DNA of 64,000 nt from Candidatus Nitrosocaldus sp. (GTDB taxonomy: Archaea > Thermoproteota > Nitrososphaeria > Nitrososphaerales > Nitrosocaldaceae): positions 1 through 64,000 of the forward strand of contig JANWZS010000007.1 in assembly GCA_025054855.1 (NCBI GenBank), read 5' to 3'. Under the pieces are notes generated by a model. The model was not told the DNA's origin. It made no database searches and saw nothing but the letters and a program-made list of their open reading frames with translations. The translations under genes and the position numbers were made by a program. Positions 10,160-61,694 of this stretch are shown one piece after another. Numbering within the stretch: the first letter of the stretch is position 1; each line of letters opens with the position of its first letter.

Positions 10160-10778
10160 GCAGCCTTGCATCCAGCATCTGCTGGACAAGGTTCACGACC
10201 TGCCCCTCAAGCTCTATCCTCGGTAGCCTCATCTTTAGACTGAACTCATCTATTATCTCGTTTATACTCTTGCTGCCATCGCACATACCCCAGAACTCCA
10301 GCAGAGCATCGTTGACCATGAATCCCTGCCCAAGATCATTAACAAGCACTAGGGAGCCATCCTCCTGCCTCACGAACTGCCCCTGCTTCAACGGTCTAGA
10401 CCTCTCAAGGTCTATGGTGAACCTCAAGCTCCTCGAACCGTATCCAGCAGAGGGGGCACGAGCAGACCTTGCACCAAAGACCTTCTCCCTTGCCTCAGGG
10501 CTCATCCGCTCAGGTGTCCATGGCGGGTCCCAGACTATCTCAACGCTCACATCCTTTATCCCCTCTACCTTGTTGAGTGCCCTCTTCACATCCCTAACCA
10601 GTGTGTTGTGCAGTGGGCATCCTGGGGTGGTCATGGTCATCTTTATCTTGATGTTGTTCTCCTCATCTATATCTATGCCATAGATCAGCCCTAGATCAAC
10701 AACGCTCAGGGGTATCTCTGGATCCATGCACTGCTTGAGCGCATCCAGTACCTGCTGCTCACTAACCTTGGCCTTCAC
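10149..10778 (-). CDS. SufT/MIP18-family protein fused to a PqqD-like domain
   Basis: Residues 1-100 form a DUF59 (MIP18/SufT/PaaD) domain, with MDPEIPLSVVDLGLIYGI and the conserved cysteine in MTTPGCPLHNTLV. Such proteins help deliver iron-sulfur clusters. Residues 130-209 look like a PqqD-type peptide-binding domain (LVLVNDLGQGFMVNDALLEF, then CDGSKSINEI), the module that presents substrates to radical SAM enzymes. The two are joined by a segment starting WDPPWTPERMSPEAR, also seen in SufT-type proteins. The combination suggests a partner that both recognises an apoprotein or peptide and assists cluster insertion; that is inference. It converges on the small membrane protein gene. Confidence 0.8.
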   Translation of the reverse strand: MKAKVSEQQVLDALKQCMDPEIPLSVVDLGLIYGIDIDEENNIKIKMTMTTPGCPLHNTLVRDVKRALNKVEGIKDVSVEIVWDPPWTPERMSPEAREKVFGARSARAPSAGYGSRSLRFTIDLERSRPLKQGQFVRQEDGSLVLVNDLGQGFMVNDALLEFWGMCDGSKSINEIIDEFSLKMRLPRIELEGQVVNLVQQMLDARLLKV

Positions 10779-58443: not shown

Positions 58444-58517
58444 GACTCCTCTGCAACCGTTATTATAGCATTTACACCATCAAGTTAGGGCTATATTTAA
58501 GTGAGTTGGGGAAGAGT

Positions 58518-59144
58518 ATGAGCATGCGTGTATTCGTTGCTATGGATGTTAGGGATGAGGGCTCAATAGGGAAGATGCTGGAGGTGCAGAGGGAGTTCAT
58601 TAGCCTGGGGCTGGATGCGAAGCCAGTGAGTAGGGGGCAGTTGCACTTCACACTGCTCTTCCTCGGCGAGATAGACCCTAGCATGCTTGAGGGCATAAAG
58701 GATAGGCTATCCAGCATGGCATTCGAGCCTGTGAACGTTGCATACAGGGGAGTGGGAGTATTCCCCAACATGAAGCATCCTAGGGTCATCTGGGTTGGTG
58801 TCGATCAAGACTCTGCATCCAGGCTTGTAGAGGTAGCAAGGGGCGTAGAGGATAGGCTCAAGCCAATGGGCTTCAGGAGCGATAAGCAGTTCACCCCGCA
58901 CATAACGCTACTCAGGGTGAGGGATGGTGGCATGGGGGGAGGGGGAGGAAGGTCCAGGAGGAGTGTGCTCGATGCCCTAACAGCAACTATAAACAGGCAT
59001 AGCAACTCTTACTTTGGGAGCGATGTGCTGGATGAGATAAAGGTGAAGAGGAGTGAACTGAGGTCTGAAGGGCCTGTATACACAGATATCTTCAGCGTAA
59101 AGGCATGCCACAGATCCATGGAGGAAGGTGCTGGAGTGGGATAG
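58518..59144 (+). CDS. thpR: RNA 2',3'-cyclic phosphodiesterase (ThpR, 2'-5' RNA ligase family)
   Basis: 2H phosphoesterase that opens 2',3'-cyclic phosphates on RNA and can join halves of tRNA in vitro. The two catalytic motifs are LHFTLLFLGE and PHITLLRV. A Gly/Arg-rich loop follows the second. The frame is open from 58506. The ATG at 58518 is preferred, about 24 bases after the TATA-like CTATATTTAAG. cca starts three bases after its stop, so the two tRNA-related genes form a unit; tRNA splicing is especially relevant given the intron-rich tRNA downstream. Confidence 0.92.
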   Translation: MSMRVFVAMDVRDEGSIGKMLEVQREFISLGLDAKPVSRGQLHFTLLFLGEIDPSMLEGIKDRLSSMAFEPVNVAYRGVGVFPNMKHPRVIWVGVDQDSASRLVEVARGVEDRLKPMGFRSDKQFTPHITLLRVRDGGMGGGGGRSRRSVLDALTATINRHSNSYFGSDVLDEIKVKRSELRSEGPVYTDIFSVKACHRSMEEGAGVG

Positions 59145-59147
59145 CAT

Positions 59148-60629
59148 ATGCCATCCCATGGAGCAGGATTGGAGAGGATCGTGGAGGAGGCGTACAGGCT
59201 GGTCGAGCCGAGCAGGGAGGATAGGGCAAGGGTAGACTCGATGGCAGGGATCTACCTCAAGAGGGTCAAGGATGCAGCACTGGAGTACAGCAGGGAGGTA
59301 AGCGATGTCGTGCTCGTTGGCTCCTATGCCAAGGATACATGGCTTGCAGAGAGCGTCGATATCGATGTATTCGTGAAGATGAGGCCTGATGTTGATGAGG
59401 AGAGGTTCGAGCATGTAGCGATGGAGATAGGGTTGAGGGCACTGCATGATGCTGGTCCTTACCTAAGGTATGCGCAGCACCCATACGTCGAGGCTGTTAT
59501 AGATGGGATTAGGGTGAACGTTGTGCCATGCTACGACGTCGAGATGGGCAGGTGGAGGAGCGCAGCGGATAGGAGCCCATACCATACGGAGTACATGCTT
59601 GAAGCGTTGGATGATGCGAAGAGGAGGGAGGTGAGGTTGCTCAAGAGGTTCATGAAGGTAATAGGTGTGTATGGTGCAGAGATAGCAGTGCAAGGGTTCT
59701 CTGGCTATGCGTGCGAGGTTCTCATACTCAGGTATGGCTCGTTCATAGGCACACTGGAGCATGCATCGAGGTGGAGGGATGGGGAGGTCATAACTCTCAC
59801 GCAGGTGGGGCAGGTAGGGGGAGGGGGTATGGTAGACGATTCACATAGGCGTAATGGGTACAGAGGTAGCCCCATAGTGATACTCGATCCCATAGATACT
59901 AGCAGGAATCTTGGCTCTGCAATCTCATACGAGAGTGTGGGCAGGTTCATACTATCGGCAAGGAACTTCCTTAGGAGACCCAGCATCGCTTACTTTACTT
60001 ACGATGGTAGAGTTGCCAGAGCCCCAATGATAGATGGTGGTAAGGCTATGAACATGGTGATGGTGCATTTTAGGCACTCTCCAAGGAGCGAGGATGTAGT
60101 GTGGGGGCAGCTTAGGAGCAGTATGGATGCCATAGCAAGGCAACTCTCCATCAACGGCTTCAGGGTTCTCAGGTATGCATGCTACACTGATGGCTCTAAT
60201 GCGTTCATCTCGTTCATGCTAGACTCGTTGAGCATACCACGCATGGTACTCAAGCGGGGACCGAAGGTATTCGATGCTAAGAACTCAGATAGGTTCATAG
60301 CCAAGAACAGGGAGAAGGGTGTACTCCTATGGGTCAGCGATGAGGATGGTAGGTTACTTGCCCTGGTAGAGAGGAGGTTCCATCATGCCAGGGATATGCT
60401 GAACCACATCATGGGCAGGGCCCTAGAGAGTAGCGGGATGAGCAGGGGGCTTATAGATGATGTGAGGAGCAACGGGTTCAGGGTATACACGTGGGATGAT
60501 GTGAAGGGGTACATGGATGGCACTTATAGCATCGAGGGCTCAGCGGTAGCATCTGCAGTAAGGAAGATAGTAGAGTATATGGTTGTAAATGATAGGTTTG
60601 CATTTGCAGATGAACCTGATACCTGTTGA
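59148..60629 (+). CDS. cca: CCA-adding enzyme, archaeal class I
   Basis: Adds or repairs the 3' CCA end of tRNA without a template. The nucleotidyltransferase motif VVLVGSYAKDTWLAESVDID, then VFVK has the GS and DxD residues. Following segments include YVEAVIDGIRVNVVPCYDVE, LLKRFMKVIGVYGAEIAVQG, then FSGYACEVLI and the body and tail domains of archaeal CCA enzymes. The length of 493 residues is somewhat above the usual 440-460, with a Gly/Arg loop near residue 225. Both tRNA genes in the window encode CCA, so a repair role is likely. The kinase gene that follows overlaps its end by 20 bases. Confidence 0.94.
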   Translation: MPSHGAGLERIVEEAYRLVEPSREDRARVDSMAGIYLKRVKDAALEYSREVSDVVLVGSYAKDTWLAESVDIDVFVKMRPDVDEERFEHVAMEIGLRALHDAGPYLRYAQHPYVEAVIDGIRVNVVPCYDVEMGRWRSAADRSPYHTEYMLEALDDAKRREVRLLKRFMKVIGVYGAEIAVQGFSGYACEVLILRYGSFIGTLEHASRWRDGEVITLTQVGQVGGGGMVDDSHRRNGYRGSPIVILDPIDTSRNLGSAISYESVGRFILSARNFLRRPSIAYFTYDGRVARAPMIDGGKAMNMVMVHFRHSPRSEDVVWGQLRSSMDAIARQLSINGFRVLRYACYTDGSNAFISFMLDSLSIPRMVLKRGPKVFDAKNSDRFIAKNREKGVLLWVSDEDGRLLALVERRFHHARDMLNHIMGRALESSGMSRGLIDDVRSNGFRVYTWDDVKGYMDGTYSIEGSAVASAVRKIVEYMVVNDRFAFADEPDTC

Positions 60630-61518
60630 GCAGCTGCTCAGAGAGCCCTTCATCAAGATAGTAGGGTACCCTCACTGTAGCGTGGAGGATGCAAGGGAGA
60701 AGGTCAGGGAGATGGATATGCTGGGTGTGAAGGGTATACTGCTTGGAGGCAGGAGCATGGTGGATGGGTTGCGTGTGCTCGGCAAGGGCTGTACGAGCAT
60801 AGTAGTCAAGGCACTACTCGATCGGTGCAGTGATGGCGATGGTGGTGATGGAGTGTGTAGTGGAAGGAGTGAGGATAGAGGTACGGATCACCATGGGGCT
60901 ATAGTGGCGCTCAAGATAATGAGGAGCGACTCTGGTAGGGCGAGCATGGAGCATGAGGCGAGGATGCTAACTATAGCCAATGGTGTTGGCGTGGGCCCTA
61001 GACTGGTAGCATACGGTAGCAAGGTACTTGTGATGGAGTTGGTTGATGGTATGCATATGATGGAGTTGGTAAGGAGGGGGGGTATGGAAGGTAGTAATAG
61101 CAGTAATAGTAGTATGGTAAGGGATGCATGTACATGCAGGATTATGGATGGGAGCGGTAATGGCTTTAGAATAAGCATAAGGTCTGTGTTACTGGATGTG
61201 CTTGAACAGTGCTTCCTCCTGGATGGTATAGGGTTGGATCATGGTGAGTTGGGGAACATGGATAGGCATGTTATGGTTAGTGACAGGGCATACATAATAG
61301 ACTTTGAGAGTTCTAGCATGGTTAGAAGGGTATCCAACGTAACGTCTGCAGTGAACTACCTACTATTTGGCAGGGGGAGCAGACTGGGAGGTATGCTCAT
61401 ACATGACCTCTACAGCAGGAGGGATGGGATAATACATGCGCTGAGGAGGTACAGGTTGGATATGGATAGGGAGAGGTTCGATGAACTCCTCCAATCGTTG
61501 GATTTAAGATTTTTATAA
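60610..61518 (+). CDS. Predicted serine/threonine protein kinase (COG2112-like)
   Basis: A kinase-fold protein of 302 residues. An N-terminal part (about 1-45) leads to KGILLGGRSMVDGLRVLGKG (glycine-rich), IVALKIMRSDSGR with the ATP-binding lysine, HEARML, the hinge VLVMELVDGMHM, GLDHGELGNMDRHV in place of the usual HxD catalytic loop and AYIIDFESSS as the metal-binding DFE. Two Gly/Ser/Asp-rich insertions (about residues 78-97 and 160-172) reflect repeat growth. It overlaps cca by 20 bases, using the ATG at 60610. A role in tRNA or ribosome biology is suggested only by position. Confidence 0.82.
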   Translation: MNLIPVEQLLREPFIKIVGYPHCSVEDAREKVREMDMLGVKGILLGGRSMVDGLRVLGKGCTSIVVKALLDRCSDGDGGDGVCSGRSEDRGTDHHGAIVALKIMRSDSGRASMEHEARMLTIANGVGVGPRLVAYGSKVLVMELVDGMHMMELVRRGGMEGSNSSNSSMVRDACTCRIMDGSGNGFRISIRSVLLDVLEQCFLLDGIGLDHGELGNMDRHVMVSDRAYIIDFESSSMVRRVSNVTSAVNYLLFGRGSRLGGMLIHDLYSRRDGIIHALRRYRLDMDRERFDELLQSLDLRFL

Positions 61519-61519
61519 A
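61511..61519 (+). promoter_or_regulatory. TATA element of the tRNA-Pro gene
   Basis: TTTTATAAA is centred about 27 bases before the first base of the tRNA. It overlaps the last codon and stop codon of the kinase gene, so one stretch serves as both coding end and promoter. Confidence 0.6.
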
Positions 61520-61541: not shown

Positions 61542-61694
61542 GGGGCCGTCGTCTACAGCATGCATAGAGGCATGCTGGCGGAGAGCTTGGTCTAGGATAC
61601 CAGAACCATCACGTGTAGAGGTGGTGAACCTGGGGGCCATGCTCACATGCTGGAACGCTGGCGGTCCGGGGTTCAAATCCCCGCGGCCCCACCA
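61542..61694 (+). tRNA. tRNA-Pro (anticodon GGG) with three introns
   Basis: The acceptor GGGGCCG (61542-61548) pairs with CGGCCCC (61684-61690); the T arm CGGGG-TTCAAAT-CCCCG lies at 61667-61683; CCA is encoded at 61692-61694. The cloverleaf closes only if three stretches are removed. These are 29 bases in the D loop (about 61556-61584, with a perfect eight-pair hairpin CAGCATGC/GCATGCTG), 25 bases between positions 30 and 31 (about 61604-61628) and 20 bases after position 37 (about 61636-61655). The joined anticodon arm is CCAGC-CTGGGGC-GCTGG, anticodon GGG, and the mature tRNA without CCA is 76 bases. Exact splice points could shift by a base. Confidence 0.85.

What the first reader, a model, noticed from the sequence alone, without database searches (positions are those of the whole stretch)
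61542..61694. tRNA-Pro(GGG) interrupted by three introns, two of them at non-canonical sites
The tRNA folds only after removing 29 bases in the D loop, 25 bases at position 30/31 and 20 bases at 37/38. The first intron has a perfect eight-pair hairpin. Three introns is about the most known in any tRNA and is otherwise typical of some thermophilic archaea. It needs a splicing endonuclease with broad specificity. Standard gene finders may miss this tRNA. thpR and cca lie just upstream.
Basis: seen in the sequence. Interest (0 to 1): 0.75.

Follow-up and report, generated by a model that had tools for sequence, protein, structure and literature searches.

The report
Three-intron proline tRNA in thermophilic archaeon
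The gene for one proline transfer RNA in this hot-spring ammonia-oxidising archaeon is interrupted by three short introns, two at unusual places; seven related species keep the same layout, so it is real, but three-intron tRNAs are a known kind, and the newer lead is a more distant relative whose copy of this gene appears to have four.

Summary
Window 61542-61691 (+) encodes tRNA-Pro(GGG) in four exons (76-nt mature form) split by introns of 29, 25 and 20 nt. Each boundary has the archaeal bulge-helix-bulge layout: two 3-nt bulges around a 4-bp exon-intron helix. The first intron is best placed at position 13/14 (14/15 gives the same mature RNA); the others are at 30/31 and 37/38. All six sampled Nitrosocaldus-type genomes and one other genus of the family have all three at the same positions. 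Exons are identical in the six, intron interiors diverge, and an exon-intron pair changes on both sides. No contiguous tRNA-Pro(GGG) was found in the 98.9% complete genome. The genome encodes a two-subunit splicing endonuclease with the catalytic triad and the lysine loop tied to broad specificity, plus RtcB ligase. ARAGORN and Rfam miss the gene in every genome tested. Three-intron archaeal tRNAs are already described, so this is a new member of a known kind. The same gene has none to four introns across the class. The four-intron copy (one unnamed order-mate) exceeds the 'up to three' stated in the papers read. Splicing itself is inferred, not shown.

The parts
61512..61519 (+). TATA-box-like element TTTATAAA, 23-30 bases upstream of the tRNA 5' end
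   Evidence: TATAAA-type element at a similar distance in all six Nitrosocaldus-type genomes and as TTATATAA in the other genus; promoter function inferred
61542..61554 (+). exon 1: acceptor 5' strand, U8, C9, D-stem 5' strand (tRNA positions 1-13)
   Evidence: identical in 7 genomes
61555..61583 (+). intron 1 (29 nt), position 13/14; bulges CU^A and AG^A, central helix UCGU/GCGG, 8-bp inner hairpin
   Evidence: MFE fold of the whole pre-tRNA contains this motif; register 14/15 (61556-61584) yields the same mature RNA
61584..61603 (+). exon 2: D loop, D-stem 3' strand, position 26, and positions 27-30
61604..61628 (+). intron 2 (25 nt), position 30/31; bulges AG^A and AA^C, central helix UACC/GGUG
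   Evidence: site present in 17 genomes of 6 families, with a double-sided change of pair 26 from A-U to G-C
61629..61635 (+). exon 3: positions 31-37 with anticodon GGG (61632-61634)
61636..61655 (+). intron 3 (20 nt), canonical position 37/38; bulges GG^G and AA^C, central helix CUGG/CUGG
   Evidence: pairing in register in 27 of 28 genomes
61656..61691 (+). exon 4: position 38 to discriminator base A73
58506..59144 (+). thpR-type RNA 2',3'-cyclic phosphodiesterase gene upstream
   Evidence: TIGR02258 equivalog, 118.9 bits, cut-off 65.7
59148..60629 (+). archaeal CCA-adding enzyme gene (cca)
   Evidence: TIGR03671 equivalog, 374 bits, cut-off 281; the tRNA follows it in four named relatives too

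Best explanation
This is the organism's working gene for tRNA-Pro(GGG), interrupted by three archaeal bulge-helix-bulge introns. The primary transcript would fold so that exon and intron bases form 4-bp helices flanked by 3-nt bulges. An (alpha-beta)2 splicing endonuclease with the broad-specificity lysine loop would cut in each bulge, RtcB would join the exons, and the CCA enzyme would add the 3' CCA, giving the tRNA that reads proline codons CCC and CCU. Shown by sequence: gene anatomy, conservation in seven genomes, exon-intron pairing, presence of the enzyme genes, no contiguous copy found. Inferred: that splicing happens, the order of the cuts, and that the product is essential.
For: The spliced 76-mer is called tRNA-Pro(ggg). 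The three sites are conserved in seven genomes; the mature sequence is identical in six while intron 2 ranges from 25 to 47 nt, and is 13 nt in the other genus. Exon base 26 and its intron partner change together, A-U to G-C, in two genomes of two families. In the intron 1 inner helix one pair goes C-G to U-G to U-A. The 37/38 helix pairs in 27 of 28 genomes, 0 of 28 when shifted. Two PF01974 genes: the alpha subunit aligns with Aeropyrum pernix EndA (E = 4e-41), keeping Tyr, His133, Lys and the loop residues K44 and Lys/Arg46, while beta lacks the His (residue roles from PMC12397907 and PMC6379350). RtcB at E = 2.8e-181. No other Pro(GGG) found. TATA-like element conserved.
Against: Free-energy folding does not favour all three motifs at once: the intron 1 helix has pair probability up to about 0.45 in the full transcript, intron 2 reaches about 0.46 only after introns 1 and 3 are removed, and the intron 3 helix (two G-U pairs) stays near zero. 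No RNA data were available. The host genome is a 42-contig draft, so a contiguous copy in a gap cannot be excluded for it alone.
Confidence: 0.95

Rival explanations
1. It is a decayed or inactive copy of tRNA-Pro(GGG), and another contiguous or split gene supplies the tRNA.
For: Standard finders reject it; the genome is a draft of 42 contigs.
Against: Exons are 76/76 identical in six species while introns drift. No contiguous copy was found in this genome, and the best match to the mature sequence in the single-contig relative G001 is the same interrupted gene. The promoter-like element is conserved.
Confidence: 0.02
2. The interruptions are fewer or lie elsewhere, for example two introns or a different D-arm register; the three-intron reading is one of several parses.
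For: The first intron has two registers with the same product, and a two-intron parse of lower structural quality exists for the single sequence (raw 31, odd anticodon).
Against: The three-intron parse scores best on the window (raw 39 against 31) and is the best parse in all seven family members. Relatives carrying only 37/38, only 30/31, or both show these two sites as separate introns.
Confidence: 0.02
3. The segment is trans-spliced or permuted rather than cis-spliced.
For: Split and permuted tRNAs exist in archaea (PMC3218864).
Against: All four exons lie in order within about 180 bases in seven genomes.
Confidence: 0.005

Closest known systems
Three-intron tRNAs of Thermoproteales, e.g. 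tRNA-Glu(UUC) of Pyrobaculum calidifontis and tRNA-Pro(UGG) of P. islandicum (PMC4390854)
   Same: Three introns in one tRNA gene, at canonical and non-canonical sites, recognised as bulge-helix-bulge motifs; (alpha-beta)2 endonuclease in that lineage (PMC6379350)
   Different: Different isoacceptor and a different lineage (ammonia-oxidising Nitrososphaeria); positions were not compared site by site here
Non-canonical tRNA introns of Thaumarchaeota (PMC8450103, tRNAscan-SE 2.0, which reports 107 of them)
   Same: Same broad group of organisms and same intron kind
   Different: The passages read do not name this gene or give per-gene positions; whether databases already list it could not be checked
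Multi-intron tRNAs of Caldiarchaeum subterraneum (PMC3293823)
   Same: Multiple introns, including D-arm sites, in tRNA genes; population evidence for intron gain
   Different: The gene described in detail has one or two introns, in tRNA-Thr(GGU)

Membership tests
Archaeal bulge-helix-bulge tRNA introns | Splice sites in two 3-nt bulges separated by a 4-bp helix between exon and intron | tested here: met
   All three introns in seven genomes; intron 3 has a weak inner helix, so its motif is of the relaxed type
Archaeal bulge-helix-bulge tRNA introns | Removal restores a canonical cloverleaf with conserved bases | tested here: met
   ARAGORN calls tRNA-Pro(ggg) on the spliced sequence
Archaeal bulge-helix-bulge tRNA introns | Exon-intron helices maintained across divergence, with compensatory change | tested here: met
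   Pair 26 A-U to G-C and pair 27 C-G to U-A; 37/38 helix 27 of 28 in register, 0 of 28 shifted
Archaeal bulge-helix-bulge tRNA introns | The motif is the favoured fold of the precursor | tested here: inconclusive
   Intron 1 moderately favoured, intron 2 only after introns 1 and 3 are removed, intron 3 not favoured by the energy model
Archaeal bulge-helix-bulge tRNA introns | Introns excised and exons joined in vivo | not testable with these tools
   No RNA data available
(alpha-beta)2 splicing endonuclease with Crenarchaea-specific loop | Separate catalytic (Tyr, His, Lys) and structural subunits | tested here: met
   Two PF01974 genes; alpha aligns over the triad, beta lacks the His
(alpha-beta)2 splicing endonuclease with Crenarchaea-specific loop | Loop lysine (A. 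pernix K44) with Arg/Lys at 46 | tested here: met
   Query ..plgipKpKdaef.. against ..PLDVEKPRGADF..; residue roles from PMC12397907
(alpha-beta)2 splicing endonuclease with Crenarchaea-specific loop | Cuts relaxed motifs at non-canonical sites | not testable with these tools
   Needs a cleavage assay
Three-intron archaeal tRNA genes | Three separate introns in one colinear tRNA gene | tested here: met
   Best parse has three introns in seven genomes

The most novel reading that the evidence does not exclude
tRNA-Pro(GGG) is a hotspot of intron accumulation in Nitrososphaeria, with present-day genes carrying none, one, two, three and four introns. The four-intron gene (G022:C30:38739-38916, sites 15/16, 20b/21, 30/31, 37/38) would exceed the documented maximum of three for an archaeal tRNA. 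The evidence does not exclude this; the four-intron case rests on one genome assembly and on sequence only.
Probability: 0.65. Interest if true: 0.5.

Novelty: new member of a known kind. Interest (0 to 1): 0.4.

Why it matters
A tRNA needed to read two proline codons is invisible to two common gene finders in a whole archaeal family, so tRNA counts there may be too low; the published Nitrosocaldus cavascurensis genome reports only 29 tRNA genes (PMC5797428). The series of none to four introns in one gene gives a direct way to study how tRNA introns are gained, lost or moved by a base or two, in organisms some of which are cultured.

Tried and rejected
A T-arm-like match at window 4112 lies in what reads as a protein-coding stretch and gives no tRNA. 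My first hand register for intron 1 (14/15 with a strict motif) failed on bulge size; 13/14 fits. Two- and three-intron searches over single sequences produce spurious parses, so single-sequence scores were not relied on. The first version of the shuffle script had a fault and returned no parses at all; it was rewritten. ARAGORN's 'Pro(ggg)' in L167 of genome G022 was considered as a contiguous rival and rejected: by eye it is an interrupted tRNA-Arg(TCT). A shared ancestral D-loop intron with families f3 and f17 was considered and not claimed: those fit 15/16 better than 13/14 (f17; f3: by hand). Pattern hits for the 30/31 intron in family f10 were mostly not tRNAs.

Full report
What is there. 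Window 61542-61691 (+) is a tRNA-Pro(GGG) gene in four exons. Removing three introns (61555-61583, 61604-61628, 61636-61655; 29, 25 and 20 nt) leaves GGGGCCGTCGTCTAGCTTGGTCTAGGATACCAGCCTGGGGCGCTGGCGGTCCGGGGTTCAAATCCCCGCGGCCCCA, 76 nt, which ARAGORN calls tRNA-Pro(ggg); it finds nothing in the unspliced sequence. Neither ARAGORN nor Rfam at its gathering score reports this gene in the window, and a permissive Rfam scan gives only a sub-threshold tmRNA-like match resting on the acceptor and T arm. Both tools also miss it in the six relatives' loci tested.

Splice sites. Each intron shows the archaeal bulge-helix-bulge layout: a 4-bp helix between exon and intron, flanked by 3-nt bulges. Intron 1: UCGU/GCGG with bulges CU^A and AG^A and a perfect 8-bp inner hairpin, position 13/14; the alternative 14/15 gives the same mature RNA. 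Intron 2: UACC/GGUG, position 30/31. Intron 3: CUGG/CUGG with two G-U pairs and a weak inner helix, position 37/38.

Chance. With the acceptor and T-arm ends fixed, 400 dinucleotide shuffles never reached the raw cloverleaf score (38 against at most 35), but two exceeded the intron-penalised score. A single sequence is therefore not conclusive; comparison is.

Relatives. A scan with the CCA enzyme brought in four relatives with record titles: Nitrosocaldus tengchongensis, N. schleperae, archaeon HR04 and an uncultured Nitrososphaerales archaeon. All have the tRNA at the same place after cca with the same three introns. Counting the window genome, one further genome of the genus and one of another genus of the family, seven genomes share the three sites. 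In the six of one genus the 76 exon bases are identical while intron 2 varies from 25 to 47 nt; in the other genus the introns are 22, 13 and 12 nt. Variable boundary bases fall in the bulges. Exon base 26 and its intron partner are A-U in 13 of 17 genomes, G-C in 2 and G-U in 2; pair 27 is C-G in 16 and U-A in 1. For the 37/38 intron the exon CUGG can pair with the predicted intron stretch (CCAG, CUGG, CUAG, CCGG, UCAG or UCGG) in 27 of 28 genomes, and in 0 of 28 at each of five shifted registers. The pattern used to collect those 28 did not ask for pairing.

Is it the only copy? Searches with the mature sequence, the tRNA family and a T-arm pattern found no contiguous tRNA-Pro(GGG) in the host genome, which is 98.9% complete. 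Pro(CGG) is contiguous and Pro(TGG) appears to have its own intron. Around a dozen other tRNAs of this genome appear interrupted too, so the genome is intron-rich in general.

Machinery. Two genes match the tRNA-intron endonuclease family. The first aligns almost end to end with the Aeropyrum pernix catalytic subunit (E = 4e-41), keeping the Tyr, His133 and Lys of the active site and the loop residues K44 and Lys/Arg46. PMC12397907 and PMC6379350 link that loop to broad specificity, and PMC4090602 assigns alpha2-beta2 enzymes to Thaumarchaeota. The second gene's product is nearest to archaeal endonucleases but lacks the catalytic His. RtcB, the archaeal tRNA ligase, is present on the same contig as the alpha subunit, about 3 kb away. 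A TATAAA-type element sits at a similar distance upstream in the family. So the pathway is complete on paper; that it acts on this RNA is inferred.

A caution. Energy-based folding supports the intron 1 motif moderately and the intron 2 motif mainly after introns 1 and 3 are gone; it gives the intron 3 helix almost no weight. Sequential removal, or stabilisation by the enzyme and the tRNA fold, would be needed. The tRNAscan-SE 2.0 authors describe genes where one intron must go before another motif can form (PMC8450103).

Across the class. The same gene is contiguous in several families, has 37/38 alone in families f18 and f19, 30/31 alone in f10, 30/31 with 37/38 in f12, f14 and f23, and three introns in the window's family. 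In G022 (family f17) the only coherent strict parse has four introns: 15/16 (49 nt), 20b/21 (16), 30/31 (17) and 37/38 (20), giving a perfect tRNA-Pro(GGG). Its contiguous Pro tRNAs read TGG and CGG, and no other Pro(GGG) was seen. The only other genome held for that family, 70% complete, has no full-length match, so this is unreplicated.

Known or new. Papers read state up to three introns per archaeal tRNA (PMC8450103, PMC4390854, PMC3293823), with examples in Pyrobaculum, and many non-canonical introns in Thaumarchaeota. [quoted passage not shown] their per-gene counts could not be read, so a four-intron tRNA may already be listed somewhere. The window gene is a new member of a known kind. 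The published N. cavascurensis genome counts only 29 tRNA genes (PMC5797428), which fits the idea that such genes were missed.

Noticed in passing
L160 (G022:C30:38739-38916): tRNA-Pro(GGG) of an order-mate parses coherently only with four introns (15/16, 20b/21, 30/31, 37/38), one more than the maximum stated in the papers read.
   Followed up: partly
host-genome loci L015, L022, L023, L026, L027, L028, L030, L102, L105, L106, L107: Many other tRNAs of the host genome appear interrupted by introns, including likely sites in the D arm and the variable region; several are missed by ARAGORN.
   Followed up: partly
L025 (G000:C39:12853-12968) and L109 (G000:C11 near 57381): Two long-variable-arm tRNA genes did not resolve cleanly with one or two introns and may carry several.
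   Followed up: no
window 60589-61518: A 309-aa ORF between cca and the tRNA has no Pfam or NCBIfam match at E 0.001.
   Followed up: no
G000:C37:6252-7559 and 10380-10613: The RtcB ligase gene and the catalytic endonuclease subunit gene lie about 3 kb apart.
   Followed up: no
intron 3, window 61636-61645, and relatives L079-L085: The first ten intron bases, (A/G)CCATGCTCA, are nearly unchanged in the six Nitrosocaldus-type genomes although they are not part of the exon-intron helix; the reason is unknown.
   Followed up: no
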